DNA of 64,000 nt. Origin: Drechmeria coniospora. Its lineage: Eukaryota; Ascomycota; Sordariomycetes; Hypocreales; Ophiocordycipitaceae. The notes below the pieces were generated by a model. It had not been told where the DNA came from and did not search any database. It was given only the letters and a program-made list of their open reading frames with translations. Of the stretch, positions 14,009-59,541 are shown piece by piece. Within the stretch, counting starts at the first letter, position 1, and the number at the start of each line of letters is the position of its first letter. The DNA is taken from the NCBI RefSeq assembly GCF_001625195.1, contig NC_054390.1:124001-188000 (forward strand). Reading direction: 5' to 3'. The translations under genes and the position numbers were made by a program.

Positions 14009-17000
14009 ATGTTCTACCCTTTGCGATTACTAGCATTAACTCCTTACTTTTATACTACTGGCTCTAGTATTAGCCTTGCTAGTAGTACTTGTAATGCTAT
14101 TGTTGAAATCTTACCAATTCAGTATATCTGTGCCAGAAGTACTTTGCAAAATGCAATCACTCAGTAAGATATTGCTAGCTTCAATTCCTTGCAGCAAGAA
14201 GTAAAGATAATAACTAGACCCATCAGAACGTACACAAGTTGTATTATACAGCCTCCTGAAGATTACTTTACAACAACAATTGCCTGGACAGGAACGGTTA
14301 CAAAAACAAAAACCATTCCAGGTGACGGTACAAACCCGGGAATGATTATAGTTCACACTCCTACTGCATATCAAACAACAACGGAGGAGTGGACCGAAAT
14401 ATTTACTAAAACGAAGAATATTCCTACTGAGTACATTATAACAACTCGGGGATGGACCAGGTCGTTTACAGAAACAAAAACCATTCCTGCTACTGGAACA
14501 ACACCTGGTATAATAGTTATCCTAACCCCCTTTGAGTATAGTAGTAGTACTAGTACAGTAATTCAGATACCAACAGGTTACGTTACTACATCCAGCGGTT
14601 GGACTGATAAAATTTTAACGACTAGGACAATACTATTAAGTAGTACTAATCAAGGTACAATCATAGTAGAAACACCTACAGCATATGTTTCTACAACTAT
14701 TCCGGGAACCATAGCCGTACTAGCAACAATTACCATTCCAGCATCTGGTACTAATCCAGGTACAATAATAGTCCAGACTCCAATTGCATCTTGGAGTAGT
14801 AGTATTACCACAGTAACAACCTTAGGCCCAATCCCAGGAACGTCAACTGTTCCACCACTTGTCGGGTGTACATTAAACTGTATAACTACATTAGTAGTCA
14901 CGGTTACTGAAGACAGAAAAACATCAAGAACAGGTCCCGATGGCGGTGCAACCACCGAATCAACCTATGGACCGACGGCTGGCACAAGTACAAGACTGCC
15001 ACCGGCAGGATGCGTTGGCGATTGTCCTACGAAGGTGATAGTTACCGTAGGCACGACAAAAACAATTACTGAATCCACCTATGGACCAACGGCAGGGACC
15101 AGTACAATTCCACCATCATCTGGGTGTATCGGCAACTGCCCCACAAGGATTATTGTAACTATAGGTACCAGTAGCCTTATTATTGAATCCACTACAGGAC
15201 CGACACCGGGGACTAGTACTATTTTACCTTTCGCTGGATGTATTGGAAACTGCCCTACCAGAATTATTGTTACCATAGGTCCTACTGGCGGTACAACTAC
15301 CGAATCCACATACGGACCAACGGCCGGGACAAGTACAGTACTACCATCTACCGGATGCATTGGCAACTGTCCTACGAGGGTAATAGTTACCGTTGGTACT
15401 ACAGATGCAATTACAGAATCCACATATGGACCAACGGCCGGCACAAGTACAGTACTACCTTCTGCCGGATGCATTGGCAACTGTCCTACGAGGGTAATAG
15501 TTACCGTTGGTACTACAGATGCAATTACAGAATCCACATATGGACCAACGGCCGGAACCAGTACAATTCCACCATTTTCTGGGTGTATTGGCAATTGTCT
15601 TACAAGGGTTATTGTAACCGTCGGTACTAGTGGCCTTATTATTGAATCCACTTACGGACCGACAGCTGGCACAAGTACGATACCGCCTTCAGCTGGATGT
15701 ATAGGTAATTGTCCTACAAGGGTTATCATAACTGTCGGTACTACTGGTATTATCACAGAATCCACAACGGGACCCACACCTGGAACCAGTACTGTTTTAC
15801 CGTCCTCTAGATGTATTGGAAATTGCCCTACCAAAATTGTTGTTACCGTAGGTCCTACTGGCGGTGCAACTACCGAATCAACTTATGGACCGACGGCCGG
15901 TACTAGTACAATTTCACCATCTTCGGGATGTATCGGCAACTGCCCTACGAGAGTAATAGTTACCGTTGGTACTACAAATGCAATTACAGAATCCACATAT
16001 GGACCAACGGCCGGGACCAGTACAATTCCACCATTTTCTGGTTGTATCAGCAACTGCCCTACAAGGATTATTGTAACCGTCGGTACCAGTGGCCTTATTA
16101 TTGAATCCACTTACGGACCGAAAGCTGGCACAAGTACGATTCCACCTCCACCTGAATGTACAGGTAATTGTCCTACAAGGGTTATCGTAACTGTCGGTAC
16201 TACTGGTATTCTGACAGAATCCACAACGGGACCCACACCGGGAACCAGTACCGTTTTACCTTCCGCTGGATGTGTTGGAAACTGCCCTACCAGAATTATT
16301 ATTACCGTAGGTCCTACTGGCAGTATAACAACCGAATCAACATATGGACCGACGGCCGGAACCAGTACAATTCCACCTTATGCCGGATGCATTGGCAACT
16401 GTCCTACGAGGGTTATAGTTACCGTCGGTACTACAGATGCGATTACAGAATCCACATATGGACCAACGGCCGGGACCAGTACAATTCCACCATTGCCCTG
16501 GTGTATCGGCAACTGCCCTACAAGGATTATTGTAACCGTCGGTACCAGTGGCCTTATTATTGAATCCACGTACGGACCGAAAGATGGCACAAGTACGATA
16601 CCGCCTTCAGCTGGATGTATAGGTAATTGTCCTACAAGGGTTATCATTACTGTCGGTACTACTGGTATTCTGACAGAATCCACAACGGGACCTACACCGG
16701 GAACCAGTACCGTTTTACCTTCCGCTGGATGTATTGGAAACTGCCCTACCAGAATTATTATTACCGTAGGTCCTACTGGCAGTATAACAACCGAATCAAC
16801 ATATGGACCTACGGCCGGAACCAGTACAATTCCACCTTATGCCGGATGCATTGGCAACTGTCCTACGAGGGTTATAGTTACCGTCGGTACTACAGATGCG
16901 ATTACAGAATCCACATATGGACCAACGGCCGGGACCAGTACAATTCCACCATTGCCCGGGTGTATCGGCAACTGCCCTACAAGGATTATTGTAACCGTTG

Positions 17001-20000
17001 GTACTAGTGGCCTTATTCTTGAATCCACGTATGGACCGACTGCTGGCACAAGTACGGTACCACCTTCAGCTGGATGTACAGGCAACTGTCCCACAAGGCT
17101 CATTATAACCATCAGCACAACAGGTGTTATCACAGATTCTACTACGGGACGCACACCGGGAACCAGCACTGTTTTACCTTCCTCTGGATGTATTGGAAAC
17201 TGTCCTACGAGGGTAATAGTTACCCTAGGTCCTTCTGGCGGTATAATTACCGAATCCACATACGGACCAACTGCCGGGATCAGTACAGTGCTAGCTTCTG
17301 CCGGATGCATTGGCTACTGTCCTACGAGGGTAATCGTTACCGTTAGTACCACAAATGTAATTACAGAATCGAGATATGGACCAACGGCTGGGACAAGTAC
17401 GATTCCACCATCTTCTGGATGTGTCGGCAACTGCCCTACAAGCATTATCATAATCGTCGGTACTAGTGGCATTATTCTTGATACTACGTATGGACCAACG
17501 GCAGGTACAAGTACGATACCGCCTTCATCTGGATGTACAGGTAACTGTCCTACAAGGGTTATCGTAACTGTCGGTACTACTGGTATTCAGACAGAATCCA
17601 CAACGGGACCCACACCGGGAACTAGTACTGTTTTACCTTCCTCTGGATGTACTGGAAACTGCCCTACCAGAATTATTGTTACCGTAGGTCCTACGGGCGG
17701 TATTACAACCGAATCAATATACGGACCAACGGCCGGGACCAGTACAGTACCACCATCTTCTGGATGTGTCGGTAACTGCCCTACAAGGATTATTGTAACT
17801 GTAGGTACTGGTGGTCTCGTTCTTGAAACTACGTATGGACCGACTGCTGGCACAAGTACGGTATCGCCTTCAGCTGGATGTACAGGTAACTGTCCCACAA
17901 GGCTTATTATAACTATCAGCACAACAGATTTTATTACAGAATCTACTACGGGACCGATACCGGGAACTAGTACTATTTCACCATCCGCTGGATGTATTGG
18001 TAACTGCCCTACAAGAATTATTGTTACCGTTGGTCCTTCCGGTGGTATAACGACTGAATCGACCTATGGCCCGACGGCTGGGACTAGGACAATACTGCCT
18101 TCTTTAGAATGTATTGGCTATTGTCCTACGATGGTAATAATTTCCGTTAGAACTACAGATGCAATTACAGAATCCACATATGGACCATCAGCTGGGACTA
18201 GTACAATTCCACCATCTTCTGGATGTGTCGGCAACTGCCCTACAAGGATTATTGTAACCGTAGGTACTAGTGGTCTCATTCTTGAAACTACGTATGGACC
18301 GACTGCCGGCACAAGTACGGTACCACCTTCATCTGAATGTACAGGCAACTGTCCTACAAGGATTATTGTAACTATTAGTACAACAGGTGTTATTACAGAA
18401 TCTACTGCGGGACCAATACCGGGAACCAGTACGATTTCACCTTCCGCTGGATGTATTGGTAACTGCCCTACGAGAATTATTGTTACCATTGGTCCTTCTG
18501 GTGGTGTAACTACTGAGTCAACCTATGGACCGACGGCTGGGACTAGTACAATACTGCCTTCTGTAGGATGCATTGGCTATTGTCCTACTAGGGTACTAGT
18601 TACCGTCAGTACAACAGATGCGATTACACAATCCACTTATGGACCATCAGCCGGGACTAGTACAATTCCACCATCTTCTGGATGTGCCGGTAACTGCCCT
18701 ACAAGAATTATTGTAACCGTCGGTACTAGTGGCCTTGTCTTTGAATCCACTTACGGACCGACACATGGCACAAGTACGATACCGCCTTCACCTGGATGTA
18801 TAGGCAATTGTCCTACAAGAGTAATCGTAACTATCGGTACTACTGGTATTCTGACAGAATCTACTATGGGACCCACACCGGGAACCAGTACTATTTCACC
18901 ATCCGCTGGATGCATTGGCAACTGCCCTACAAGTATTATTATTACCGTAGGTCCTTCTGGTGGTATATCTACTCAATCAACCTATGGACCGACGGCTGGG
19001 ACTAGTACAATACTGCCTTCTATAGGATGCATTGGCTATTGTCCTACTATGGTATTAGTTACTGTTGGTACAACAGATGCGATTACAGAGTCCACGTATG
19101 GACCATTAGCCGGGACTAGTACAATTCCACCATCTTCTGGATGTGTCGGCAACTGCCCTACAAGGATTATTATAACTGTAGGTACTAGTGGCCTCATACT
19201 TGAAACTTCATATGGACCGACTGCTGGTACAAGTACTGTACCACCTTCAGCTGGATGTACAGGCAACTGTCCTACAAGGATTATTGTAACTATTAGCACA
19301 ACAGGTGTTATTACAGAATCTACTACGGGACCGATACCGGGAACCAGTATTATTTCACCTTCCGCTGGATGTATTGGTAACTGCCCTACAAGGATTATTG
19401 TTACCGTTGGTCCTTCTGGTGGTATTACTACTGAGTTTACCTATGGACCGACGGCTGGGACTAGTACAATACTGCCTTCTGTAGGATGCATTGGCTATTG
19501 TCCTACTACGGTACTAGTCACCGTCAGTACAACAGATGTAATTACAGAATCCACTTATGGACCATCAGCCGGGACTAGTACAATTCCACCATCTTCTGGA
19601 TGTGTCGGTAACTGCCCTACAAGGATTATTGTAACCGTAGGTACTAGTGGCGTTATTCTTGAAACTACGTATGGACCGACTGCTGGCACAAGTACGGTAC
19701 CGCCTTCAGCTGGATGTACAGGCAACTGTCCCACAAGGCTCATTATAACCATCAGGACAACAGGTGTTATTACAGAATCCACTACGGGACCCACACCGGG
19801 AACCAGCACTATTCTAGCATCCGCTGGATGTATTGGTAACTGCCCTACAAGGATTATTGTTACCGTTGGTCCTTCTGGTGGTGTAACTACTGAGTTAACC
19901 TATGGACCGACAGCTGGGACTAGTACAATACTGCCTTCTGTAGGATGCATTGGCTATTGTCCTACTAGGGTACTAGTCACTGTCAGTACAACAGATGCAA

Positions 20001-23000
20001 TTACAGAATCCACATATGGACCATCAGCCGGGACTAGTACAATTCCACCATCTTCTGGATGTGTCGGTAACTGCCCTACAAGAATTATTGTAACTGTAGG
20101 TACTAGTGGTCTCATACTTGAAACTTCGTATGGACCGACTGCTGGTACAAGTACTGTATCACCTTTATCTGGATGTACAGGCAACTGCCCTACAAGGATC
20201 ATTGTAACTATTAGTACAACAGGTTTTATTACAGAATCTACTATGGGACCGATACCGGGAACCAGTACTATTTCACCGTCCGCTGGATGTATTGGTAACT
20301 GCCCTACGAGAATTATTGTTACCGTTGGTCCTTCCAGTGGTATAACTACTGAAATAACCTACGGTCCTATAGCTGGGACTAGTACAATACTGCCTTCTAT
20401 AGGATGCATTGGCTATTGTCCTACTCTGGTACTAGTCACTGTCAGTACAACAGATGCGATTACAGAATCCACATATGGACCATCAGCCGGGACTAGTACA
20501 ATTCCACCATCTTCTGGATGTGCCGGCAACTGCCCTACAAGGATTATTGTAACCGTAGGTACTAGTGGCGTTATTCTTGAAACTACGTATGGACCGACTG
20601 CTGGCACAAGTACGATACCGCCTTCAGCTGGATGTACAGGCAACTGTCCCACAAGGCTCATTATAACTATCAGCACAACAGGTGTTATTACAGAATCTAC
20701 TACGGGACCCACACCGGGAACCAGTACTATTTTAGCATCCGCTGGATGTATTGGTAACTGCCCTACAAGGATTATTGTTACCGTCGGTCCTTCTGGTGGT
20801 GTAACTACTGAGTTAACCTCTGGACCGACAGCTGGGACTAGTACAATACTGCCTTCTGTAGGATGTATTGGCTATTGTCCTACTAGGGTACTAGTCACCG
20901 TCAGTACAACAGATGCGATTACAGAATCCACTTATGGACCATCAGCCGGGACTAGTACAATTCCACCATCTTCTGGATGTACCGGCAACTGCCCTACAAG
21001 GATTATTGTAACCGTAGGTACTAGTGGCGTTATTCTTGAAACTACGTATGGACCGACTGCTGGTACAAGTACGGTACCACCTTTCGCTGGATGTACAGGC
21101 AACTGTCCTACAAGGATTATTATAACTATTAGCACAACAGGTGTTATTACAGAATCTACTACCGGACCGATACCGGGAACTAGTACGATTTCACCTTCCG
21201 CTGGATGTATTGGTAACTGCCCTACGAGAATTATTGTTACCGTTGGTCCTTCCGGTGGTATAACTACTGAGTTAACCTATGGTCCTATAGCTGGGACTAG
21301 TACAATACTGCCTTCTGTAGGATGCATTGGCTATTGTCCTACTACGGTACTAGTTACCGTCAGTACAACAGATGCAATTACAGAATCCACATATGGACCA
21401 TCAGCCGGGACTAGTACAATTCCACCATCTTCTGGATGTACCGGCAACTGCCCTACAAGGATTATTGTAACCGTAGGTACCAGTGGCATTATTCTTGAAA
21501 CTACATATGGACCGACTGCTGGCACAAGTACGGTACCGCCTTCATCTGGATGTATAGGCAATTGTCCCACAAGGCTCATTATAACCATCAGCACAACAGG
21601 TGTTATTACAGAATCTACTACGGGATCAACACCGGGAACTAGTACTATTTTACCATCCGCTGGATGTATTGGTAACTGCCCTACGAGAATTATTGTTACT
21701 GTTGGTCCTTCTGGTGATATAACTACGGAGTCAACCTATGGACCGACAGCTGGGACTAGTACAATACTGCCTTCTGTAGGATGCATTGGCTATTGTCCTA
21801 CTAGGGTACTAGTCACTGTCAGTACAACAGATGCGATTACAGAATCCACTTATGGACCATCAGCCGGGACTAGTACAATTCCACCATCTTCTGGATGTGC
21901 CGGCAACTGCCCTACAAGGATTATTGTAACCGTAGGTACCAGTGGCATTATTCTTGAAACTACGTATGGACCGACTGCTGGCACAAGTACAGTACCGCCT
22001 TCAGCTGGATGTACAGGCAACTGTCCCACAAGGCTCATTATAACCATCAGCACAACAGGTGTTATTACAGAATCTACTACGGGACCCACACCGGGAACCA
22101 GTACTATTTCACCTTCCGCTGGATGTATTGGTAACTGCCCTACGAGAATTATTGTTACCGTTGGTCCTTCTGGTGGTGTAACTACTGAGTTAACCTATGG
22201 ACCGACTGCTGGGACTAGTACAATACTGCCTTCTGTAGGATGCATTGGCTATTGTCCTACTACGGTACTAGTTACCGTCAGTACAACAGATGCGATTACA
22301 GAATCCACTTACGGACCATCAGCCGGGACTAGTACAATTCCACCATCTTCTGGATGTGTCGGTAACTGCCCTACAAGGATTATTGTAACCGTAGGTACTA
22401 GTGGCGTTATTCTTGAAACTACGTATGGACCGACTGCTGGTACAAGTACGGTACCGCCTTCAGCTGGATGTACAGGCAACTGTCCCACAAGGCTCATTAT
22501 AACCATCAGCACAACAGGTGTTATTACAGAATCTACTACGGGACCCACACCGGGAACCAGTACTATTTCACCTTCCGCTGGATGTATTGGTAACTGCCCT
22601 ACGAGAATTATTGTTACCGTTGGTCCTTCTGGTGGTAGAACTACTGAGTTAACCTATGGACCGACTGCTGGGACTAGTACAATACTGCCTTCTGTAGGAT
22701 GCATTGGCTATTGTCCTACTACGGTACTAGTTACCGTCAGTACAACAGATGCGATTACAGAATCCACTTACGGACCATCAGCCGGGACTAGTACAATTCC
22801 ACCATCTTCTGGATGTGTCGGTAACTGCCCTACAAGGATTATTGTAACCGTAGGTACTAGTGGCGTTATTCTTGAAACTACGTATGGACCGACTGCTGGT
22901 ACAAGTACGGTACCGCCTTCAGCTGGATGTACAGGCAACTGTCCCACAAGGCTCATTATAACCATCAGGACAACAGGTGTTATTACAGAATCCACTACGG

Positions 23001-26000
23001 GACCCACACCGGGGACCAGTACTGTTATACCTTCCTCTGAATGTATTGGTAACTGCCCTACGAGAATTATTGTTACCGTTGGTCCTTCTGCGGGTATAAC
23101 TACAGTTAAGACTACTAGTACTATAACTGGTATAGTACCCGGCACGATGACTATGTCTCCACCGATTAATTGCAACCCATGCACAATAACCATTTTTGAA
23201 ACTGTAACTTCAAACCAGGGTCTGGATGTAGTAGTAACTATATTTACAACAGGGATAATACCAGGAACTGCAACTATCTTGCCTTCTGTAGATTGCACGC
23301 ATCCATGTACTACAACAATAATTATTACGCAGCCTCCTGATATAGCTTTAACTACTACAGTTGCAGGAACGATTCCTGGCACCTCTACTATCTTGCCTCC
23401 TGTTGGTTGCACGCACCCATGCACTACGAGTGTTGTTATAACTGTAACCTCACTACAACCACCGGATACTGCTGTAACAACTACATTTACGACTGGCACC
23501 ATACCGGGAACGTCAATAATTTTACCCCCTACAGATTGCACGCATCCCTGTACTACGAGTATTATTATTACACAGCCTCCTGATATAGCCGTAACAACTA
23601 CCACTACAGGGACAGTGCCTGGCACGTCTACTGTAATACCCCCAGTTGATTGCACGCACCCGTGCACGACAACTGTAATTATAACAATAACTTCTAACCA
23701 GCCTCCTGATACAGCTATAACAACAACGATTACGACTGGCACTGTACCAGGAACCTCAACAATTTTGCCTCCTACCGATTGCACGCACCCGTGCACTACA
23801 AGAATTATTATAACCATACCTCCCGACACAATCGTAACAAAAACGGTACCTGGAACATTGCCTGTAACGTCGACTATCCAGCCACCGCCCGACTGCACTC
23901 ATCCATGTACGACGAGCGTTATCGTTATTACGACGCCGAGCCAGGCCCCGGATACGGCCGAAACAACGACGGTTCCCGGTACTATCGCTACTACAAGCAC
24001 TATTACGCCGCCGCCCGACTGCACCCATCCATGTACGACGAGCGTTATTGTTATTACGACGCCGAGCCAGGCCCCGGATACGGCCGAAACAACGACGGTT
24101 CCCGGTACTATCGCTACTACAAGCACTATTACGCCGCCGCCCGACTGCACCCATCCATGTACGACAAGCGTTATTGTAGTTACGACGCCCAACCAGCCCC
24201 CGGACACGGCCGTAACGACGACGGTCCCTGGTACTATCGCTACTACAAGCACTATTACGCCGCCGCCCGACTGCACCCATCCGTGTACGACAAGCGTTAT
24301 TGTAGTTACGACGCCCAACCAGCCCCCGGACACGGCCGTAACGACGACGGTCCCCGGTACTATCGCTACTACAAGCACTATTACGCCGCCGCCCGACTGC
24401 ACCCATCCGTGCACTACGAGCGTCGTCGTCTTTACGACCCCGATCCAGCCTCTAGACACGGCCATAACGACGACGGTTACCGGTTCGGTGCCCGGTACGA
24501 CTACTGTTACGCCTCCAGCCGACTGCACACACCCTTGCACTACGAGCATTATTATTACACAGCCTCCTGATATTGCCGTGACAACTACTACTACAGGGAC
24601 AGTGCCTGGCACGTCTACTGTAATACCCCCAGTTGATTGCACGCACCCGTGCACGACAACTGTAATTATAACAATAACTTCTAACCAGCCTCCTGATACA
24701 GCTATAACAACAACGATTACGACTGGCACTTTACCAGGAACCTTAACAATTTTGCCTCCTACCGATTGCACGCATCCGTGCACTACAAGAATTATTATAA
24801 CCATACCTCCCGACACAATCGTAACAACAACAGTGCCTGGAACATTGCCTGTAACGTCGACTATCCCGCCACCGCCCGACTGCACTCATCCATGTACGAC
24901 GAGCGTTATTGTTATTACGACGCCGAGCCAGGCCCCGGATACGGCCGAAACAACGACGGTTCCCGGTACTATCGCTACTACAAGCACTATTACGCCGCCG
25001 CCCGACTGCACCCACCCGTGTACGACGAGCGTCATCGTCGTTACGACGCCCAACGAGCCCCCGGACACGGCCGTAACTACTACGGTTTCCGGTTCGGTGC
25101 CCGGTACGACTACTATTTCGCCGCCAGCCGACTGTATACACCCATGCACTACAAGTGTTATTATTACGCAACCTAATGATGTTGCTATAACTGTAACTAC
25201 ATTTGGCACAGTTCCAGGCACCACAACTGTCACACCACTCCCTGATTGTACGCACCCGTGCACTACAAGCGTTATTATTACCGCTTCTCCTCTACCACTA
25301 AACTGTTCTGTATCGGGATTTCTCGCTCAGCAGGCTGGTAGTGCTATGGAATTATATGGTGTGGACCTAATAACTGGTGAAGCAAGTCTCATTAATGGGA
25401 ATATGGATACTGCACCATGGGCAGGCGTTAATGCTATTGGATATAATGTTATGGATAACTATATTTACGGGGCGACCTATACTTCATCGCTTGGACCGGG
25501 CAACTTAATCCGTATCGGAGCTGGAGGTGAAACTCTGGTATTGCCAATATCGATGCCATTCTTTACAACTTGCGGCGACGTCGCTCCCGATGGCCAGTTT
25601 TATATTTTAGGCGCCGAAGGCACTGGTAGTACTCCTGCATGGGCCCAGATTGACCTGTCCGACTCAAGTTCTCCTAGTTATGGCAACGTAGTTGCTAGAG
25701 GAAATACCCGTATTACCCAAGCAGTTAGGGACTGGGCCTATGTCCCTGGAGCAGGAAATTTCTTATGGACTTATGCGGATACGGGAGCCTCGCCAAATGT
25801 CGTAGGCTTATTCCGTTGGGATTTGACGACTCATGCCTTTACTGGCGTTCGAAATTTATTCACAATTAGCTATACCTCCCATATTGGAGCGGTTTATGCA
25901 TCGGCGGACGGATATCTCTACGGCAGCGATAATGTTTCTGGCAGAATTTATAGGGTTAACGTTACGAGTTCACAACCTTATCAGCTCGTTTCATCTGGTC

Positions 26001-33832: not shown

Positions 33833-33874
33833 CAGGCAGCTCTTTAAAAAGTGCTTAAATCCTACCTGCTCCTT

Positions 33875-39745: not shown

Positions 39746-39925
39746 TGTTGGTTCGGTTCTGGGGGAAACTGGTAACAAGAGATCTCTTTCAATGGATTCA
39801 ATTTGGTACGAAAGGAGGGAAAAGAGGCTGCCCCTGAGCGGCCACTTTTATCCTCTCTGTGATCGTGCCCCACACGATCACGTGATCCTAGTCTACTATT
39901 GGCCACTATATACATACAACATACA
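39746..39925 (-). repeat. 5' LTR of the copia element
   Basis: 180 bp, the partner of 33653-33832, ending CAACATACA. It abuts codon GGT of the subtilase exon at 39926. Confidence 0.93.
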
Positions 39926-43122: not shown

Positions 43123-43167
43123 TGTAAGGTTATTTATTGTAAGATTATTTATTGTAAGGTTATTTAT
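43123..43167. repeat. Three tandem 15-bp units beside the MULE terminal repeat
   Basis: TGTAAGGTTATTTAT occurs three times in tandem (the middle copy has GATT), directly inside the right terminal repeat. Subterminal repeats of this sort are common in DNA transposons. Confidence 0.85.
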
Positions 43168-47203: not shown

Positions 47204-50200
47204 TCGGAACAGAAACTGTAGTGACGATAACACTGGTAGTGCAAGGATGAGTGCAGTTGGGTGGCGGCGTAATAGTACTTGTTCCAAGAGATGTCCCTTC
47301 TACAGTTATTGTTGTTGCTTTATCAGCAACAGTAGTTATAATAATTCTTGTAGTGCACGGATGAGTGCAGTCTGTCGATGGCGTAATTGTACTCGTACCA
47401 ACACGAGTTCCACTTACAGTTGTCGTTACTACTGTATCAGGAACCGTTGTTACGATGATTCTTGTAGTACAGGGGTGAGTGCAGTCTGTCTGCGGCGTAA
47501 TTGTACTAGTACCAATACGAGTCCCACTTACAGTTGTCGTTACTACTGTATCAGGAACTGTTGTTACGACAATACTTGTAGTACAAGGATGAGTACAGTC
47601 GGTAGGCGGCGTGATCGTCCTTGTACCAGGAAGTAATCCGGACACTGTTATAGTTATAGCTGTATCAGGTGGTTGACTAGTTGTTACAGTAACAATAACG
47701 ATTGTTGTACAAGGATGGGTGCAATCAGGTAGTGGCGAAATCGTCGCTGTGCCAGGGGCCGAACCAGAAACTGTAGTTGTTATAACCGTGCCTATAGCAG
47801 TCGTTATAATAATTCTGGTAGGGCAGAATCCAGTGCACCCTGGAGAGGGTATAACAGTACTGGTCCCAGCAGTTAGACCAAAGGTAGTTTCAGTTATAAG
47901 GCCTCCAGTAGGAGCTACAGTTATAATAATCTGTGTATAGCAGTTTACTATGCATCCAGATGTTGGTGGAATAGTACTCGTCCCAGCAGTTGGACCAAAC
48001 GTAGTAATAGTGCTAAAGCCGCCTGTCTCTGTAACAATAATTCTAGTAGGGCAGAATCCAGTACACCCAGAAGAGGGCAAAATAGTACTGGTCCCAGGGG
48101 TTGGACCAAATACAGTGATAGTAATAACACCTCCGCTAGGTGCAACAGTTATAACAATCTGTGTAACACAATTTACTGTACATCCTGATATTGGTAGAAT
48201 AGTAGTGGTCCCAGCAGTTGGGCCAAAAGTTGTAATAGTACTAAAGCCACCAGTAGCAGTAACAATAATCCGAGTGGGACAGAATCCGGTACATCCAAGA
48301 GATGGCAAAATAGTACTGGTCCCATCAGTTGGACCAAAGGTAGTTTCAGTAATAACGCCTCCACTTGGTCCTACAGTTACAATAATCTGTGTAAAGCAGC
48401 TTACTGTGCATCCTGATGTTGGTGGAATAGTACTCGTCCCAGCGGTTGGGCCGAACGTTGTAACAGTACTCAAACCGCCTGTAGCGGTAACAACGATCCT
48501 AGTAGGACAGAATCCGGTGCATCCGATCGAAGGTAAAATTGTACTAATGCCAGTAGTTGGACCAAAGGTAGTTTCGGTAATAACACCTCCGGTAGGTTCT
48601 ACCGTTATAATAATTTGTGTATAGCAGTTTTCTGTACATCCTGATATTGGTGGAATGGTACTCGTCCCAGCAGTTGGGCCATATGTCGTAGCTGTGCTGA
48701 AGCCGCCTGCAGCAGTAACAACGATCCTAGTTGGACAGAATCCGGTGCATCCAATTGAGGGAAGGATTGTACTAATCCCAGTAGTTGGACCAAAAGTAGT
48801 TTCAGTAATAATACCTCCACTAGGGGCTATAGTTACAATAATCTGTGTAAAGCAGTTTACTATACATCCTGATGTTGGTGGAATAGTGCTCGTCCCAGCA
48901 GTTGGGCCAAACGTTGTAACAGTACTGAAGCCGCCTGTAGCGGTAACAACGATCCTGGTAGGACAGAATCCGGTGCATCCAATCGAGGGTAGAATTGTAC
49001 TGATTCCAGTAGTTGGACCAAAGGTAGTTTCGGTAATAACACCTCCAGTAGGTGCTACAGTTACAATAATCTGCGTAAAGCAGTTTACTGTACATCCTGA
49101 TGTTGGTGAAATGGTACTTGTCCCCGCAGTTGGACCAAACGTTGTAGTAGTACTAAAGCCTCCAGTAGCTGTAATAATAATTCTAGTAGGACAGAATCCG
49201 GTGCACCCAGACGAGGGTAAAATAGTACTAGTCCCAACAGTTGGACCAAATGTAGTGTCAGTAATAACACCTCCGCTGGGTGCTATAGTTACAATAATCT
49301 GCGTAAAACAGTTTACTATACATCCTGATGTTGGTGGAATAGTACTCGTCCCAGCAGTTGGACCAAATGTTGTAATAGTACTAAGGAATCCTGTAGCTGT
49401 AACAATAATTCGAGTAGGGCAAAATCCAGTACAACCAGAAGTCGGCAAAATAGTACTAGTCCCAGCAGTTGGGCCAAATGTAGTTTCAGTTATAATACCC
49501 CCAGTAGGTGATACAGTTATAATAATTTGTGTAAAGCAGTTTACTGTACATCCCGATGTAGGGGAAATAGTACTCGTCCCAGCGGTTGGGCCAAATGTTG
49601 TAACAGTACTAAAGCCACCTGTAGCCGTTACAATAATTCTAGTAGGGCAGAATCCGGTGCATCCGATCGAGGGTAGAATTGTACTAATGCCGGTAGTTGG
49701 ACCAAAAGTAGTTTCAGTAATAACACCACCAGTCGGTGCTACAGTTACTACAATTTGTGTAAGGCAGTTTACTGTGCATCCTGATGTTGGTGGAATGGTG
49801 CTCGTCCCTGCAGTTGGGCCAAACGTTGTAATAGTAGTAAATCTACCGGTAGCTGTAACAATGATCCTAGTAGGACAGAATCCGGTGCAACTAGGGGAGG
49901 GCAAAAGTGTACTGGTCCCAGCTGTCGGGCCCAATGTAGTTTCAGTAATGATACCTCCACTAGGTGCTATAGTTAGGACAATCTGTGTATAGCAGTTAAC
50001 TGTGCATCCCGATGTTGGTGGAATAGTACTTGTCCCAGCAGTTGGGCCAAACGTAGTAATAGTACTAAAGCCACCTGTAGCTGTAACAACGATTCTAGTA
50101 GGGCAGAATCCAGTACATCCAAGAGAAGGCAAAATAGTACTTGTCCCAGCTGTAGGACCAAAGGTAGTTTCAGTGATAACACCACCAGTAGGTGCTACAG

Positions 50201-53200
50201 TTACAATAATCTGCGTAAAGCAATTTACTGTACATCCTGATGTTGGTGGAATAGTACTTGTCCCTGCAGTTGGACCAAAGGTAGTAATAGTACTAAAGCC
50301 TCCAGTAGCTGTAATAATAATTCTAGTAGGGCAGAATCCGGTGCACCCAGACGAGGGTAAAATAGTACTAGTCCCAACAGTTGGACCAAATGTAGTGTCC
50401 GTAATAACACCTCCGCTAGGTGCTATAGTTACAACAATCTGCGTAAAACAGTTTACTATACATCCTGATGTTGGTGGAATAGTACTCGTCCCAGGGGTTG
50501 GGCCAAACGTTGTAACAGTACTAAAACCGCCGGTAGCGGTAATAACGATCCTAGTAGGACAGAATCCGGTACATCCGATCGAGGGTAGAATTGTACTAAT
50601 ACCAGTAGTTGGACCAAAGGTAGTTTCAGTAATAACGCCTCCAGTAGGTGCTACAGTTACAACAATTTGTGTAAAGCAATTTACTGCACATCCTGATGTT
50701 GGTGGAATAGTACTTGTCCCAGCAGTAGGTCCAAACGTTGATACAGTACTAAATCCGCCTGTAGCGGTAACAACGATTCTAGTAGGACAGAATCCGGTGC
50801 ATCCGATCGAGGGTATAATTGTACTGATTCCAGTAGTTGGACCAAAGGTAGTTTCGGTAATAACACCCCCAGTAGGTGCTACAGTTATAACAATCTTCGT
50901 AAAGCAGTTTACTATGCATCCTGATGTTGGTGGAATAGTGCTTGTCCCAGCAGTAGGACCAAACGTTGTAATTGTACTAAATCCGCCTGTAGCAGTGAAA
51001 ACGATTCTGGTGGGACAGAATCCCGTGCAACCGATTGATGGTAAGATTGTACTAATGCCAGTAGCTGGACCAAAGGTAGTTTCGGTGATAATACCTCCAG
51101 TAGGTGCTACAGTTACAACGATCTGTGTAAAGCAGTTTACTGTGCATCCTGATGTTGGTGGAATAGTACTAGTTCCAGCAGTTGGGCCAAATGTCGTTAC
51201 CGTACTAAATCCACCAGTAGCAGTAACAATAATCCTAGTGGGACAGAATCCAGTACATCCAGAAGATGGCAAAATAGTACTCGTCCCATCAGTTGGACCA
51301 AAGGTAGTTTCAGTAATAATACCCCCAGTAGGTGCTACAGTTATAACGATTTGTGTATAGCAGTTTACTGTGCATCCTGATGTTGGTGGAATAGTGCTAG
51401 TCCCGGCGGTTGGACCAAAAGTTGTAACTGTACTAAAGCCGCCTGTAGCAGTGACAACAACCCTAGTAGGACAAAATCCAGTGCATCCAAGAGGTGGTAA
51501 AATAGTACTAGTTCCAACAGTTGGACCGAAGGTAGTTTCAGTTAGAATACCTCCAGTAGGTGCTACAGTTACAATAATTTGCGTATAGCAGTTCGCCGTG
51601 CATCCTGATGTTGGTGGAATAGTGCTCGTCCCAGCAGTTGGACCGAATGTAGTTTCAGTTATAACACCTCCACTAGGTTCTATAGTTACAACAATTTGTG
51701 TAATGCAGTTTATTGTACATCCTGATGTTGGCGGAATTGTGCTGGTCCCTGCGATTGGACCGAACGTTGTTATAGTGCTAATGCCACCGGTAGCAGTAAC
51801 AACGACCCTAGTGGGGCAAAATCCGGTGCAACCGATGGAGGGCAAAATAGTACTAGTCCCAGCTGTTGGACCAAAGGTAGTCTCAGTTATCAAACCTCCA
51901 CTAGGTGCTACAGTTACGACAATCTGCGTAAAACAATTTACTATGCATCCTGATAATGGTGGAATAGTGCTCGTGCCAGCAGTTGGGCCAAAGGTTGTAA
52001 CTGTACTAAATCCGCCTGTAGCGGTAACAACGATTCTAGTTGGACAGAATCCGGTGCATCCAACAGATGGCAAAATAGTACTGGTCCCAGCAGTTGGACC
52101 GAAGGTAGTTTCGGTAATGAAACCCCCGGTAGGTGCCACAGTTACAACAATCTGTGTAATGCAGTTTACTATGCATCCTGATGTTGGTGGAATAGTGCTC
52201 GTTCCAGCAGTTGGGCCAAATGTTGTAATAGTGCTAAAGCCGCCTGTAGCGGTAACAATAATTCTAGTGGGGCAGAATCCGGTGCACCCAGTGGATGGCA
52301 AAATAGTACTGGTCCCAGGAATTGGGCCAAAGGTAGTTTCAGTCATAATACCTCCTGTAGGTGCTACAGTTACAATAATTCGTGTAAAGCAGTCTACTGT
52401 GCATCCTGATGTTGGTGGAATAGTACTGGTGCCAGCAGTTGGCCCAAACGTTGTAATAGTGCTAAAGCCACCGGTAGCTGTAATGACAATTCTAGTAGGG
52501 CAGAATCCGGTGCATCCAATCGAGGGTAGAATTGTACTGATACCAGCAGTTGGACCGAAGGTTGTTTCAGTAATTAAACCTCCAGTAGGTGCTACAGTCA
52601 CAACAATCTTTGTAAAGCAGTTTACTGCACATCCTAATGTTGGTGGAATAGTGCTCGTCCCAGCAGTTGGACCAAACGTTGTAATGGTGCTAAAGCCGCC
52701 TGTAGCTGTAACGACAATTCTAGTGGGGCAGAATCCGGTGCACCCAGCAGAGGGTAAAATAGTACTGGTCCCAGGAATTGGGCCAAAGGTAGTTTCAGTT
52801 ATAATTCCTCCTGTAGGCGCTATAGTTACAACAACTCGCGTAAAGCAATTTACTGTGCACCCTGATGTTGGTGGAATAGTGCTCGTGCCAGCAGTTGGGC
52901 CAAACGTTGTGATCGTACTAAAACCACCTGTAGCTGTAACAACGATTCTAGTAGGACAGAATCCAGTGCACCCAGTGGACGGAAAAATAGTACTGGTCCC
53001 TGCGATTGGGCCAAAGGTAGTTTCAGTTACAATTCCTCCTGTAGGGGCTACAGTTACAACAATCCGTGTAAAGCAGTTTACTATGCATCCTGATGTTGGT
53101 GGAATAGTGCTCGTCCCAGCGGTTGGTCCAAAAGTCGTAACTGTACTATACCCTCCTGTAGCAGTGACTAAGATAATCGTAGGGCAGAATTCGGTGCACC

Positions 53201-56200
53201 CTGCAGAGGGCAAAATAGTACTGGTCCCAGGTGTTGGACCGAATGTTGTAACAGTACTAAAGCCGCCTGTAGCGGTAACAACAATCCTAGTAGGACAAAA
53301 TCCAGTGCATCCGATGGCGGGCAAAATAGTACTAGTCCCGGCAGTTGGACCAAACGTAGTTTCAGTAATAACACCTCCAGTAGGTTCTACAGTTACAATA
53401 ATCTGTGTATAGCAGTTTACTGTGCATCCTGATAATGGTGGAACGGTGCTCGTCCCAGCAATGGGGCCAAACGTTGTAATAGTGCTAAAGCCGCCTGTAG
53501 CTGTAACAACGATTCTAGTAGGGCAGAATCCAGTACAATCAGAAGAGGGAAAAATAGTATTAGTACCAGGAGTCGGACCAAAGGTAGTTTCAGTAATAAC
53601 ACCTCCAGTAGGTGCTACTGTAACAACAATCTGTGTATAGCAGTTTACTGTGCATCCTGGTGTTGGTGGGATGGTGCTCGTGCCTGCAGTAGGGCCGAGC
53701 GTTGTTACAGTGCTAAATCCACCTGTAGCGGTAACAACAATCCTAGTGGGACAGAATCCGGTGCATCCGATTGAGGGTATCATGGTACTAATGCCAGTAG
53801 TTGGACCAAAGGTAGTTTCAGTAATAATACCTCCAGTAGGTGCTACGGTTACAACAATCTGTGTAAAGCAGTTTACTGTACATCCTGATGTTGGTGGAAT
53901 AGTACTCGTTCCAGCAGTTGGGCCAAATGTTGTAATAGTGCTATAGCCGCCTGAAGCTGTAATAATAACTCTAGTAGGGCAGAATCCAGTACAACCAGAA
54001 GAGGGCAAAATAGTACTGGTACCAGGCATTGGGCCAAAGGTAGTTTCAGTCATAATACCCCCTGTAGGTGCTACAGTTATAATAATTTGTGTAAAGCAGT
54101 TTACTGTGCATCCTGATGTTGGTGGAATAGTACTGGTGCCAGCAGTTGGCCCAAACGTTGTAATAGTGCTAAAGCCACCTGTAGCTGTAACGACAATTCT
54201 AGTAGGGCAAAATCCTGTGCATCCAATTGAGGGTAGAATTGTACTAATTCCAGCAGTTGGACCGAATGTAGTTTCCGTAATAAAGCCTCCAGTAGGTGCT
54301 ACAGTTACAACAATTAGTGTAAAGCAGTTTACTGCACATCCTGATGTTGGTGGAATAGTACTCGTCCCAGCCGTTGGGCCAAAGGTGGTTTCAGTAATAT
54401 AGCCTCCAGTAGGGGCTATAGTTACAACAATCTTGGTATAGCAATTTACCGTGCATCCTGATGTTGGTGGAACAGTGCTCGTCCCCGCAATTGGTCCAAA
54501 CGTAGTGACAGTGCTAAAGCCGCCTGTTGCTGTAATAACTATCCTAGTAGGGCAGAATCCCGTACACCCAGATGAAGGTAAAATAGTACTGGTACCAGCA
54601 GTAGGACCAAAAGTAGTTTCAGTCGTAACACCCCCACTGGGTGCTACAGTTATGATAATTTGTGTAATGCAGTTTATCGTACAACCGGACGACGGCTGAA
54701 TAGTACTGGTACCAGCTATAGATCCTGTCGTGTATTGCGTAACAATACCAGTTGAGGCAATTGTTATAATTATTGTTGTTGGGCAATTTTCATTTCTTGG
54801 TACAAGCCCGTCCCGGCGCATTAATGCTTTATCGGGACATTCTGAATTTGTCGGCAATATTGTACTTGTTCCAGCAGTTGGTACAAATGTAGAAATTGTA
54901 ACAATGCCTCCTGTTGTCGGGATAGTAACTATAACAGTCATCGGACAGTTCCCAATGCACCCTGCAGACGGCAAAATTGTACTTGTTCCTTTTGTTAGTC
55001 CCACTGTAGATCTTGTAACAATATCTGTAGTGGCCTCGGTAATAATAACTTTTGTATAGCAGTTAAAAGAACATCCGGATTGTGGTGTTATCGTGCTGGT
55101 ACCGGCAGTAGGTCCGAAAGTCGTTACAGTACTAAAACCACCTGTAATAGTAACAATTATTTGTGTATAGCAGTTTGATATACATTGAGGTAACGGAGCA
55201 ATCGTGCTTGTACCAGGGGTCGGACCATAAGTTGTAATTGTACTAATATGCTGGGCAGATGTACCTACCGTAATAATAATTATTGTTGGACAGTTACCCA
55301 CACAATCAGATGAAGGCAAAATAGTACTGGTTCCGGCTGTAGGTCCTACTGTAGATTGTGTAATAGCGTCTGTAGTACCTACTGTAACTATGATCTTTGT
55401 AGGACAATACCCAACGCATCCTGCTGATGGTAATATTGTACTTGTTCCAGCCGTAGGTCCATAGGTAGATTCAGTAGTTATACCGCCAGTAGGTCCTACG
55501 GTAACAATAATCCTAGTTGGGCAGTTTCCAGTACATCCCGGAGAAGGTAAGATAGTACTAGTTCCCGGTATTGGTCCTGTAGTAGACTCTGTAATAATGC
55601 CTGTAGTACCAACAGTTATAACAATCCTCGTAGGACAGTTACCTATACATCCAGATGAAGGCGGTATCGTACTTGTACCTGCAGTTGGTCCATAGGTGGA
55701 TTCTGTAATCGCATCTGTCGTACCGACAGTAACTATTACCTTCGTAGGACAATAGCCAATGCATCCTGCCGAGGGTAATCTTGTACTCGTTCCAGCCGTC
55801 GGTCCATACGTTGATTCAGTAATAATACCGCCAGTAGGACCTACGGTAACAATAATTCTAGTTGGACAGTTTCCAGTACAATCGGCTGGAGGCAAGATAG
55901 TACTGGTTCCAGGGGTTGGTCCTGTAGTAGACTCTATTACAACGCCTGTAGTTCCGGCAGTTATAACAATCCTTGTAGGACAGTTACCGATACATCCAGC
56001 CGAAGGCGGTATTGTACTTGTACCGGCTGTCGGTCCGTAGGTAGATACAATAATAATGTTGCTAGTACCTACTGTTACAATAACTCTTGTAGGGCAGTTG
56101 CCAAAACACCCAGGCAGTGGTGGAATTGTGCTAGTCCCAGCCGTCGGTCCATAGGTAGATTCCGTAATAGCATCTGTCGTACCTACGGTAACTATTACTT

Positions 56201-59200
56201 TTGTAGGACAATAGCCAACGCATCCTGCCGAAGGTAATCTTGTACTTGTTCCAGCCGTCGGTCCATAGGTTGATTCCGTAATTGTACCGCCGGTAGGACC
56301 TACAGTAACAATAATTTTAGTTGGACAATTTCCAGTACACCCAGCAGATGGCAAGATAGTACTGGTTCCCGGTATTGGTCCTGTCGTAGATTCTGTTACA
56401 ACACCTGTAGTTCCGATAGTTATTACAATCCTTGTAGGACAGTTGCCGAGACATCCGGCCGAAGGTGGTATAGTACTTGTACCAGCTGTCGGTCCGTAGG
56501 TAGATTCAATAACAAGGTTGCTAGTACCAACTGTTACAATAATTCTTGTAGGGCAGTTACCGCTACACCCAGGTAGTGGTGGAACTGTACTAGTCCCGGC
56601 CGTTGGTCCATAGGTGGATTCCGTAATTGCATCTGTCGTACCTACGGTAACTATTACCTTCGTAGGACAATAGCCAACGCATCCTGCTGAGGGTAGTCTT
56701 GTACTCGTTCCAGCCGTCGGTCCATACGTTGATTCCGTAATTGTTCCGCTAGTCGGACCTACAGTAACAATAATCCTAGTTGGGCAGTTTCCAGTACACC
56801 CGGCAGAAGGCAAGATAGTACTCGTTCCCGGTGTTGGTCCTGTTGTGGACTCTGTTACGATACCTGTAGTACCGACAGTTATGACAATCCTCGTAGGACA
56901 GTTACCTATGCATCCAGACGAAGGTGGTATCGTACTTGTACCAGCTGTCGGTCCATAGGTAGATTCCGTAACCCTATCTGTCGTACCAACAGTAACTATT
57001 ACCTTCGTAGGACAAAAGCCAACGCATCCTGGAGAGGGAAATCTTGTACTCGTTCCAGCTGTCGGTCCATAGGTTGATTCAGTAGTTACACCGTCAGTAG
57101 GACCTACAGTAACAATAATCCTAGTTGGGCAGTTTCCAGTACACCCAGCAGAAGGCAAGATGGTACTAGTTCCCGGTATTGGTCCGGTAGTAGACTCTGT
57201 AATAACGCCTGTAGTTCCGACAGTTATAATAATCCTTGTAGGACAGTTACCGATACATCCAGCCGAAGGCGGTATTGTACTTGTGCCAGCTGTCGGTCCG
57301 TAGGTAGATTCAATAACAAGGTTGCTAGTACCAACTGTTACAATAATTCTTGTAGGGCAGTTACCGCTACACCCAGGAAGTGGTGGAATTGTACTTGTCC
57401 CGGCTGTTGGACCGTAGGTGGATTCTGAAATTACATCTGTTGTACCCACAGTAATTATTATCTTCGTAGGACAATAGCCAACGCATCCTAGAGAGGGAAA
57501 TCTTGTACTGGTTCCAGCTGTCGGTCCATAGGTTGATTCAGTAGTTACACCGCCAGTAGGACCTATAGTAACAATAACCCTAGTTGGGCAGTTTCCAGTA
57601 CACCCAGCAGAAGGCAAGATGGTACTAGTTCCCGGTATTGGTCCTGTAGTGGACTCTGTTATGATACCTGTAGTACCGACAGTTATAATAACCCTTGTAG
57701 GACAGTTGCCTACACATCCAGCCGAAGGCGGTATTGTACTTGTACCGGCTGTCGGTCCGTAGGTAGATTCAAGAACAAGGTTGCTAGTACCTACTGTGAC
57801 AATAATTCTTGTAGGGCAGTTACCGATACACCCAGGTAGTGGTGGAACTGTACTAGTCCCGGCCGTTGGTCCATAGGTGGATTCCGTAATTGCATCTGTC
57901 GTACCTACGGTAACTATTACCTTCGTAGGACAATAGCCAACACATCCTACCGATGGTGGTCTTGTACTCGTTCCAGCTGTCGGTCCATACGTTGATTCGG
58001 TAATAATACCGCCAGTAGGACCTACGGTAACAATAATCCTAGTTGGGCAGTTTCCAGTACAATTGGCTGAAGGCAAGATAGTACTGGTTCCCGGTGTTGG
58101 TCCTGTAGTAGACTCTACTACAATACCTGTAGTTTCGATAGTTATAACAATTCTTGTGGGACAGTTACCGATACATCCAGCCGAAGGCGGTATAGTACTT
58201 GTACCGGCTGTCGGTCCATACGTAGATTCAATAACAAGGTTGGTAGGACCTACTGTTACAATAATCTTTGTAGGGCAGTTGCCGATACATCCGGCCGAAG
58301 GCGGTATTGTACTTGTGCCAGCTGTCGGGCCGTAGGTGGATTGAATAACAAGGTTACTAGTACCCATTGTTACAATAATCCTTGTAGGGCAGTTACCAAT
58401 ACATCCGGAAGATGGTACAATTGTACTGGTTCCGGCTATTGGCCCGTATGTAGTTTCAGTTATAGCATCTGTGGTACCTACAGTTATAATAATCCTTGTT
58501 GGACAGCTGCCTACACATTCACCTGAAGGTATTATTGTACTTGTGCCCGCTACCGGTCCATGTGTAGTCTCAGTTGTATATCCTCCTGTAGCGGTTGCAA
58601 TGATTCTTATTCTGCAGTTTACTGTACATCCAGGAGGTGGCATTATCGTAGTTATCCCCGGTATAGGGCCAAAAGTCGTCTCGACTATAACCGTTACAAT
58701 TACTCTTGTACGGCATCTGCCTGTACATCCGGGTCGAGGTAATATTGTACTTGTTCCAGCTACAGGTCCACTTGTAACTTGGGTTAGGATATAGGGAGTT
58801 ACAGTTATAATAATAGTAGTAGGACAATTTATACATTCAGGTGGTGGAAGAATCGAACTAGTGCCAGGCGTTGGACCAAATGTCGTTTTGGTAGTATATC
58901 CACCTGTTAGCGACGCTACTGATGTTGGCTCGACAATAACAACTGTTCCCGTTTTAAATGTTCCCTTTGGTGCTTCTGTAAAAGTCGACCCCAGTAATCC
59001 CGTTCCCTTGCTCGTAATGGTAGTATACGGGCCTGTAAATGTTGATCTCGGTTCTACAATAACTACTGTTCCTGTCTTGTCTGTACTAGAAGGTGGTAGT
59101 GAAAGTGTAATAGTATTCGTACCGGTTCCAACTGCAGTAACTGTTGTATATGGTCCTGTAAATGTTTCCTCTATTGTACTTGGCTGTATTACAATAATCG

Positions 59201-59541
59201 TTCCGGTTCTCCCTGTTCCCGTTGGATTTAAAGATATTGTAGATTTAACAGTACCTGTACCAATGCCTGTAATTGTAGTGAATGGTCCTGTAAAGGTACT
59301 CGAACCCATATATGACGTATAAGTTCTAATATTCTCTTAGTATTAGAATTCTATAAGGACGGATATCTATCCTAAGCGCATCATACCGAATACTATGGCT
59401 TTCTTTCGTTGCACTGGAGCATACTATTTCAAAGGGCTGAAATTCAACAAGTACTGTCCCTTTAACATCGTGTGCCGCTCCGTAATCAAAATTTGCATAT
59501 AATAGGAGGACGGTGAATCTTGCTAAGTTTATAATATTCAT
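44490..59541 (-). CDS. Giant modular secreted adhesin 2: CX3C stalk with four GLEYA heads
   Basis: I propose exon 1 at 59541-59387 and exon 2 at 59325-44490, about 4996 residues. The start is MNIINLARFTVLLLYA, a moderately hydrophobic leader. Splicing gives SIRTYTSYMGSST, matching PIRTYTSC in giant gene 1. Order of parts: three N-terminal units (GPYTTVT plus TGTVVIVEP); stalk units with CX3C, first in the four-unit pattern of gene 1 (about 58.5-55.3 kb), then about 30 two-unit repeats (TSGCTVNCFTQIVVTVAP and SGCTGFCPTRIVVTATGG, 228 bp); a few DCTHPCTTS units; then four GLEYA domains (YYYPNENS, DNFSFVDQGYYVPPTTGIY, FFLGDGNAFDC, AGFAYPFRY). GLEYA domains are lectin-like ligand-binding heads of fungal adhesins. 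No GPI signal follows the last domain (ends YPLLCG). Confidence 0.87.
47820..54720 (-). repeat. Coding 228-bp dyad repeat of the stalk
   Basis: Alternating 38-codon units with CTVNCFTQ and CTGFCPTR cores repeat about 30 times with a period near 228 bp. Adjacent dyads are highly similar, while the whole array is mildly diverged. Confidence 0.92.
55260..58500 (-). repeat. Coding 459-bp four-unit repeat, same order as in giant gene 1
   Basis: Units follow the order GCVGYCPTK, then GCSGNCPTR or GCIGNCPTR with GTSNLVIE, then GCIGNCPTRI with GTTGVVTE, then GCTGNCPTR with GPTGGTITE. That is 153 codons, about seven copies. Order and linkers correspond to the array of giant gene 1. Confidence 0.88.
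59326..59386 (-). other. Predicted intron of giant gene 2
   Basis: 61 nt, GTATGA to ATATTAG, with CTAAT about 18 nt before the acceptor. It removes the stop at 59339-59337 that closes the long frame, keeps phase (51 codons plus 2 nt in exon 1) and yields the IRTYTS junction shared with giant gene 1. Confidence 0.75.

What the first reader, a model, noticed from the sequence alone, without database searches (positions are those of the whole stretch)
14009..59541. Convergent pair of giant secreted adhesins with one stalk and different heads
Two proteins of about 4,270 and 5,000 residues face each other. Both use the same four-unit, 153-residue stalk repeat in the same order, and the same IRTYTS sequence after the first intron. 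One carries two DUF6923-like domains and the other four GLEYA domains. This suggests a modular adhesin family in which heads are exchanged on a common stalk. The pairing in one locus and the combination of heads are, to my knowledge, not a described system.
Basis: partly seen in the sequence, partly recalled or inferred. Interest (0 to 1): 0.85.

Follow-up and report, generated by a model that had tools for sequence, protein, structure and literature searches.

The report
Giant fungal adhesin family, swapped heads
Two neighbouring genes of a worm-killing fungus encode enormous, probably secreted and sticky proteins, and they turn out to be two members of a large, poorly catalogued family, clustered near the chromosome ends, in which different head domains sit on similar repeated stalks.

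Summary
Both giant genes look real. A (14009-26887, +) gives about 4,271 residues with two DUF6923 domains; B (59541-44490, -) about 4,996 with four GLEYA domains. Each has a 155-nt first exon, a phase-2 intron and one giant exon under purifying selection. "The same stalk" holds only partly: A uses the 153-residue repeat throughout, B in about its first 30%; the rest of B's stalk is a different 76-residue repeat. The convergent pair is not special. The genome fits Drechmeria coniospora, a nematode endoparasite, and holds at least 45 such open frames of 2,000 residues or more, 31 of 45 within 600 kb of a chromosome-contig end, with neighbours convergent, divergent or tandem in similar numbers. 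Heads are GLEYA, DUF6923 (modelled here as a beta-propeller) or a glycine-rich domain without a Pfam match; one frame carries two kinds. Both exon-1 types occur with all three heads, so the modular reading is supported family-wide. Published work counts nine GLEYA and ten ALS proteins. Closest known kind: fission-yeast GPI-less adhesins with C-terminal GLEYA or DIPSY heads. Verdict: a new, extreme variant of a known kind; expression and binding are untested.

The parts
14009..14163 (+). A, exon 1: 155 nt, possible signal peptide (MFYPLRLLALTPYF..)
   Evidence: read; 10 matches in the genome including itself, 8 of 10 upstream of a counted giant frame; hydropathy only moderate (best 11-residue mean 1.24); no SignalP run
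14164..14226 (+). A, intron 1 (GTAAGA...AACTAG..CAG), phase 2
   Evidence: my reading; same arrangement in the family gene G, C2:19415-33370; no transcript evidence
14227..26887 (+). A, exon 2: giant frame, stop at 26885-26887
   Evidence: (stop-to-stop frame 14168-26887)
14941..23105 (+). A, stalk: 153-residue (459-bp) four-unit repeat, units of 38,38,38,39 with CxxxCxT
23258..25290 (+). A, neck: CTHPCTT repeats of 38-43 residues (limits approximate)
25319..26035 (+). A, DUF6923 head, copy 1
26126..26842 (+). A, DUF6923 head, copy 2 (29 of 729 nt differ from copy 1)
59387..59541 (-). B, exon 1: 155 nt, signal-peptide-like start (MNIINLARFTVLLLY..)
   Evidence: read; 33 matches in the genome at E<1 including itself, 23 of 33 at E<=1e-3; best 11-residue hydropathy 1.86; no SignalP run
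59326..59386 (-). B, intron 1 (GTATGA...CTAATACTAAG..TTAG), phase 2
   Evidence: my reading; same arrangement in gene D; no transcript evidence
44490..59325 (-). B, exon 2: giant frame, stop at 44490-44492
   Evidence: (stop-to-stop frame 44490-59336)
55261..58561 (-). B, first part of stalk: 153-residue four-unit repeat as in A
47801..55166 (-). B, second part of stalk: different 76-residue (39+37) two-unit repeat (limits approximate)
   Evidence: (228-bp period)
47210..47801 (-). B, neck: CTHPCTT repeats
46701..46964 (-). B, GLEYA head copy 1
   Evidence: related to Epa6/Epa1 (PDB 4coy, E 2.1e-10)
45993..46259 (-). B, GLEYA head copy 2
45285..45551 (-). B, GLEYA head copy 3 (pS 0.074, pN 0.007 to copy 2)
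44577..44843 (-). B, GLEYA head copy 4; the frame ends about 30 codons later, no hydrophobic tail

Best explanation
A and B are two ordinary members of a large, mostly chromosome-end family of giant, secreted, GPI-less, wall- or matrix-held adhesins of Drechmeria coniospora. Steps with evidence: short first exon, phase-2 intron, one giant exon made of 37-43-residue Cys/Thr/Pro repeats, then one to five C-terminal head domains (GLEYA/PA14 lectin fold, DUF6923 beta-propeller, or glycine-rich). Members combine the same exon-1 types and stalk types with different heads, and stalks are homogenised within each gene. Inferred steps: the protein is secreted, the Cys-rich repeats are held in the cell wall or extracellular layer without a GPI anchor, the C-terminal heads project outwards and bind glycans or proteins of the nematode cuticle or of neighbouring fungal cells, and unequal exchange near telomeres renews stalk length and head combinations.
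For: Gene models and domains. Purifying selection. Organism: contigs of 12,542,233, 10,204,147 and 9,751,215 bases against three chromosomes of 12.5, 10.2 and 9.8 Mb, and DCS_08298 of D. coniospora as top DUF6923 hit (90% identity over 63% of the query). Family: 45 frames >=2,000 aa, 42 >=2,700 with median 4,055; 31 of 45 within 600 kb of a contig end, where 11% of the sequence lies (entered by hand). Combinatorial heads; two kinds in one frame; five DUF6923 matches in the 5,508-aa frame. Within-gene homogenisation: 413 of 422 units have their nearest relative in the same gene, where 17-57% would be the share of such units. No strongly hydrophobic tail in 6 of 6 C-termini read. Biology: conidia stick to the cuticle by an adhesive bud (PMC4859500, passages); one of nine GLEYA proteins (DCS_00041) is high in conidiogenesis and infection (PMC4792172 section 14).
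Against: No expression, secretion or binding data for A or B. The paper reports that none of ten ALS-type genes was transcribed at a high level, that one of nine GLEYA proteins was, and points to another adhesin, the Mad1 orthologue DCS_00989, so many members may be silent and other proteins may do the sticking. A's N-terminus is only moderately hydrophobic. B's GLEYA copies carry D-N where lectins of this fold have the D-D calcium motif (4 of 4), and Q for the CBL2 asparagine in copies 2-4 (compared by eye with the motif described in PMC6218569, passages), so calcium-lectin activity is doubtful for them. The stalk fold is unknown (model pLDDT 32).
Confidence: 0.65

Rival explanations
1. Silent archive: most members, A and B included, are not expressed and serve as a chromosome-end reserve from which heads and stalk pieces are copied into one or a few expressed loci, as in antigenic-variation families.
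For: Clustering near contig ends, near-identical tandem heads, mixed-head frame, one of nine GLEYA proteins reported as highly expressed, LTR-like repeats near some members.
Against: Stalk units are nearest to units of their own gene in 413 of 422 cases, so recent exchange between the six genes examined (two of them in part) is not visible; frames stay open under purifying selection with their own exon 1.
Confidence: 0.2
2. A and B form a dedicated two-component adhesive system encoded as a convergent pair.
For: They are neighbours, convergent and share a repeat type.
Against: Neighbour orientation is 13 convergent, 14 divergent, 15 tandem of 42; 17.6 kb with a Copia-type element lies between them; a third member lies 10 kb beyond B; exon-1 types differ between A and B.
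Confidence: 0.05
3. The proteins serve fungal cell-cell adhesion or form the spore mucilage rather than binding the host.
For: Closest architecture, the fission-yeast flocculins, acts in cell-cell adhesion (PMC13147542, PMC6023273, passages).
Against: The lifestyle depends on conidial adhesion to nematodes; one GLEYA member rises during infection.
Confidence: 0.25
4. The long frames are a by-product of repeat DNA whose unit happens to lack stops, not genes.
For: Repeat arrays with periods divisible by three stay open easily, and long antisense frames exist.
Against: pN/pS pattern by frame, conserved exon 1 and intron, intact head domains at the ends.
Confidence: 0.04

Closest known systems
Fission-yeast GPI-less adhesins (Linder and Gustafsson 2008, cited there; Map4, Mam3, Pfl family), seen in passages of PMC6023273 and PMC13147542
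   Same: Secretion signal, Ser/Thr-rich tandem repeats, no GPI signal, ligand-binding domain (GLEYA or DIPSY) at the C-terminus; different heads on repeats
   Different: Map4 and Mam3 are listed with 948 and 1,082 residues; here about 4,000-5,000, with DUF6923 or glycine-rich heads, Cys-rich 38-residue units, tandem heads and at least 45 frames
Epa/Flo PA14-type adhesins (Candida glabrata, Saccharomyces)
   Same: GLEYA/PA14 head related in sequence to Epa1/Epa6; chromosome-end expansion; repeat stalk
   Different: Head is C-terminal, no hydrophobic GPI-type tail found, D-D calcium motif replaced by D-N in B
D. coniospora GLEYA and ALS families of Zhang et al. 2016 (PMC4792172, section 14)
   Different: Nine GLEYA and ten ALS proteins counted there; here GLEYA lies in 41 distinct open frames, 23 of them >=2,000 aa
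Candida ALS adhesins
   Same: PF05792-type repeats occur in the neighbouring member G and in other frames
   Different: No PF05792 match in A or B; no ALS N-terminal domain found there

Membership tests
GPI-less repeat adhesins with C-terminal head (fission-yeast type) | N-terminal secretion signal | tested here: inconclusive
   Simple hydropathy only: best 11-residue mean in the first 30 residues 1.24 (A), 1.86 (B), 2.06 (D), 2.31 (G)
GPI-less repeat adhesins with C-terminal head (fission-yeast type) | Ser/Thr-rich tandem repeats | tested here: met
   S+T 31.9% in A and 30.5% in B, 89 and 101 CxxxCxT sites
GPI-less repeat adhesins with C-terminal head (fission-yeast type) | C-terminal GLEYA or DIPSY domain, protein B | tested here: met
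   Four GLEYA
GPI-less repeat adhesins with C-terminal head (fission-yeast type) | C-terminal GLEYA or DIPSY domain, protein A | tested here: not met
   DUF6923 instead
GPI-less repeat adhesins with C-terminal head (fission-yeast type) | No GPI-addition signal | tested here: met
   A and B: best 15-residue hydropathy in the last 40 residues 0.73 and 0.57; range over 6 members 0.07-1.63, highest in G (no GPI predictor run)
GPI-less repeat adhesins with C-terminal head (fission-yeast type) | Non-covalent wall association, adhesion function | not testable with these tools
   Needs extraction and adhesion assays
Epa/Flo PA14 GPI adhesins | PA14/GLEYA fold | tested here: met
   B: PF10528, PF07691; Epa6 4coy E 2.1e-10; by sequence, no model made
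Epa/Flo PA14 GPI adhesins | Head at the N-terminus and GPI anchor at the C-terminus | tested here: not met
   Heads are C-terminal; no hydrophobic tail in B
Epa/Flo PA14 GPI adhesins | D-D (DcisD) motif for calcium | tested here: not met
   D-N in 4 of 4 B copies; also D-N in L007 and L008, D-A in D; D-D in L001, L003/L004 (overlapping pieces of one gene), L005, L006 and L002 (weaker pairing)
Candida ALS family | ALS repeats PF05792 and ALS N-terminal domain | tested here: not met
   Neither in A or B (E up to 1)
DUF6923 (PF21959) | Profile match above curated cut-off | tested here: met
   A: 142.6 bits against 27

The most novel reading that the evidence does not exclude
A parasite of worms keeps a chromosome-end toolkit of at least 45 giant adhesin frames in which heads (PA14 lectin, five-bladed propeller, glycine-rich) are recombined on exchangeable stalks, and changes which heads its spores show, so that host-surface recognition evolves, or switches, by domain shuffling between chromosome ends. 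It would be a fungus-against-nematode counterpart of the surface-protein variation families of animal pathogens.
Probability: 0.25. Interest if true: 0.85.

Novelty: new variant of a known kind. Interest (0 to 1): 0.6.

Why it matters
D. coniospora is a much-used natural pathogen of C. elegans. In the papers I saw, several proteins are proposed for spore adhesion (a GLEYA protein, a Mad1 orthologue, HsbA-like and CFEM proteins), none shown to be responsible. An under-counted family of giant, mosaic candidate adhesins near the chromosome ends gives genes and domains to test. It may also account for part of the published species-specific terminal repeats. The DUF6923 model gives a structural identity, a beta-propeller, to a domain of unknown function.

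Tried and rejected
Convergent pair as a system: rejected on orientation counts. One shared stalk in A and B: rejected, B is composite. An 11,522-residue frame at C2:5.19 Mb looked like a record but runs through a stretch of N; other frame lengths outside the fetched DNA may be inflated in the same way, and that frame is still one of the 45. Stalk structure: AlphaFold model without information (pLDDT 32). RIP indices of A and B fall in the RIP-like range, but Thr/Val-rich codons would distort them, so I draw nothing from them. Relatives of B's GLEYA head: none (candidates of about 2,721-8,659 aa; about 118-374 aa); intermediate lengths were not searched. Of the 64 DUF6923 proteins only DCS_08298 shows the CTHPC neck, but that search saw only proteins up to 1.75 times the query. 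The glycine-rich head has no Pfam match. Small contigs were left out of the census; C7 matches part of C3:7.34 Mb score for score. The 1,980-aa frame next to the 2,089-aa frame at C2:478-490 kb was left out by the length limit; the two may be one gene. Four counted frames have an unknown head; some DUF6923 matches (frames of 2,788, 3,512 and 4,380 aa) are near the cut-off. In some searches only the best 150 candidates were scored, so counts are lower bounds and uncounted members may lie between the neighbours. No telomere repeat was seen in C2:1-258000, so 'chromosome end' means contig end. Structural rivals of the propeller: only the 50 rows shown in each were read.

Full report
1. Where the window lies. 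It is C2:124001-188000 of a 32.83-Mb, 28-contig assembly. Its three large contigs measure 12,542,233, 10,204,147 and 9,751,215 bases, matching the 12.5, 10.2 and 9.8 Mb chromosomes published for Drechmeria coniospora ARSEF 6962 (PMC4792172, passages); the Swe1 and Swe3 strains have 8.5, 11.6 and 11.6 Mb (PMC7500977, passages). The closest DUF6923 protein in the database is DCS_08298 of D. coniospora, 90% identical over 63% of the query. I take the organism as settled.

2. The two genes. Stop-to-stop frames of 4,239 codons (14168-26887, +) and 4,948 codons (44490-59336, -) are the longest in the window. Upstream of each lies an ATG-started exon of 155 nt, a GT..AG intron of about 60 nt with a branch-point-like sequence, and then the giant exon (splice sites are my reading). 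The spliced proteins have about 4,271 and 4,996 residues. Two further members on the same chromosome arm, G (C2:19415-33370, -, 4,651 codons) and D (C2:193390-206193, -, 4,267 codons), show the same arrangement; A resembles G and B resembles D in exon 1.

3. Anatomy. A: 153-residue repeat (38+38+38+39) through the stalk, then a CTHPCTT neck, then two DUF6923 domains. B: the 153-residue repeat only up to about residue 1,340, then a 76-residue repeat (39+37) to about 3,845, a short CTHPCTT neck, and four GLEYA domains with a neck unit between each. Some heads are recent tandem copies: 29 of 729 nt differ between the two DUF6923 copies, and pS is 0.074 between GLEYA copies 2 and 3, 0.19 and 0.23 to copy 4. 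No strongly hydrophobic C-terminal tail was seen in 6 of 6 members (best 15-residue mean 0.07-1.63, highest in G).

4. Are they genes? Within unit classes pN/pS is 0.19-0.37 in the coding frame. In other frames it is 0.88 or more, except for one antisense frame, where it is 0.26-0.46, weaker than the coding frame in each of the five classes compared. The exon-1 search with A gave 10 matches, with B 33 at E<1, each including the query gene; 23 of the 33 are at E<=1e-3. Of these 43 exons 30 lie where the 5' end of a counted giant frame is expected, within a margin of 1.5-2.5 kb; 13 are not matched to a counted frame. No transcript was available.

5. The family. GLEYA has 64 matches in 41 distinct open frames, 23 of them >=2,000 aa. 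DUF6923 has 37 matches. The glycine-rich head of G has 12 matches. Stalk queries gave 1,885 and 1,813 first-look candidates and the neck query 2,079, of which only 150 each were scored. Put together there are at least 45 frames >=2,000 aa on the three large contigs: 22 GLEYA, 9 DUF6923, 9 glycine-rich, 1 with both GLEYA and DUF6923, 4 with unknown head. 31 of 45 lie within 600 kb of a contig end, where 11% of the sequence lies (the binomial p of 8e-20 treats members as independent, which clustered duplicates are not). The published account gives nine GLEYA and ten ALS proteins and about 0.5 Mb of species-specific repeats at each chromosome end. My inference, not tested, is that these genes make up part of those repeats. 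One frame, at C2:5.19 Mb, runs through N, so lengths outside fetched DNA are provisional.

6. Modularity. A-type exon 1 precedes 6 GLEYA, 1 DUF6923 and 1 glycine-rich frame (8 of 10 matched). B-type precedes 11 GLEYA, 4 glycine-rich, 2 DUF6923, 1 mixed and 4 unknown (22 of 33 matched; 5 of the 22 are weak, E 0.02-0.43). The frame ending near C3:603.7 kb has GLEYA followed by a neck and DUF6923. So heads and 5' parts have been recombined in the past. It need not be recent: 413 of 422 stalk units from six genes, two of them in part, are nearest to a unit of the same gene, against a share of such units of 17-57%, i.e. stalks are homogenised gene by gene.

7. Is the pair special? No. Adjacent counted members are convergent 13, divergent 14, tandem 15 times; within 100 kb 6, 6 and 9. 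Between A and B lie a Copia-type element (RVT_2, E 2.4e-8) and a subtilase fragment.

9. Mechanism. Most likely the proteins are secreted and held in the wall or adhesive layer by their long Cys-rich repeats, with C-terminal heads exposed, as described for fission-yeast Map4 (PMC6023273, passages), and take part in sticking conidia to nematodes or fungal cells to each other. Architecture is shown; secretion, retention, exposure and binding are inferred. Against it, the paper reports high transcription for one of nine GLEYA and none of ten ALS genes, and other candidate adhesins.

10. Novelty. The general plan is known from fission yeast, and the D. coniospora expansion was noted in 2016. New to my searches: the size and count of the family, DUF6923 propellers and glycine-rich heads on the same stalks, mixed heads in one protein, the 5'-part by head combinations, and the placement near chromosome ends. 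Searches of the held papers: Drechmeria with subtelomer (3 papers, one seen in passages, two in the listing only), GLEYA or DUF6923 (all 29 listed, no occurrence of DUF6923), and wider term sets of which only the head of the list was seen (30 of 211; 30 of 2,951; 12 of 27; 20 of 28,489; 12 of 333). None of the titles or passages seen describes it; subscription papers and supplements were not covered.

Noticed in passing
window 33657-39786 and 3451, 8032, 10399-11273, 31274, 41937, 43661: A 37-nt sequence occurs 10 times (3 of the 10 with 1-2 mismatches; expected 0). Copies at 33657 and 39750, same orientation, flank the Copia-type frames 33875-39276 (RVT_2 in one of them), so they look like LTRs and the others like solo LTRs. 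In the genome 41 matches were listed (40 of 161 candidates scored); some lie about 1 kb from family frames (C3:9573615, C3:9653334, C1:12123205).
   Followed up: partly
window 32094-33695 (-): Subtilase fragment with Fn3-like domain; the frame at C2:52924-55095 ends in a similar sequence.
   Followed up: no
window 3736-5262 (-) and 2586-3308 (+): Serine carboxypeptidase (E 1.7e-56) and a weak pyroglutamyl-peptidase match (E 1.2e-5).
   Followed up: no
window 11950-12606: 93-bp tandem repeat, about 7 copies, about 1.4 kb upstream of gene A's start codon.
   Followed up: no
C2:5142600-5148816 (outside window): Two divergent family frames (2302 and 2101 aa) with identical match scores lie about 4 kb apart: an inverted duplication or an assembly artefact.
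   Followed up: no
C3:9736718-9738430 (outside window): A 1,390-aa frame has DUF6923 and then GLEYA matches, the reverse order of the mixed frame at C3:600-604 kb.
   Followed up: no
window 14-60 kb against C2:50-120 kb: The adhesin genes of C2:1-258 kb sit in stretches of 41-49% GC (10-kb bins), while C2:50-120 kb has 59-63%.
   Followed up: no
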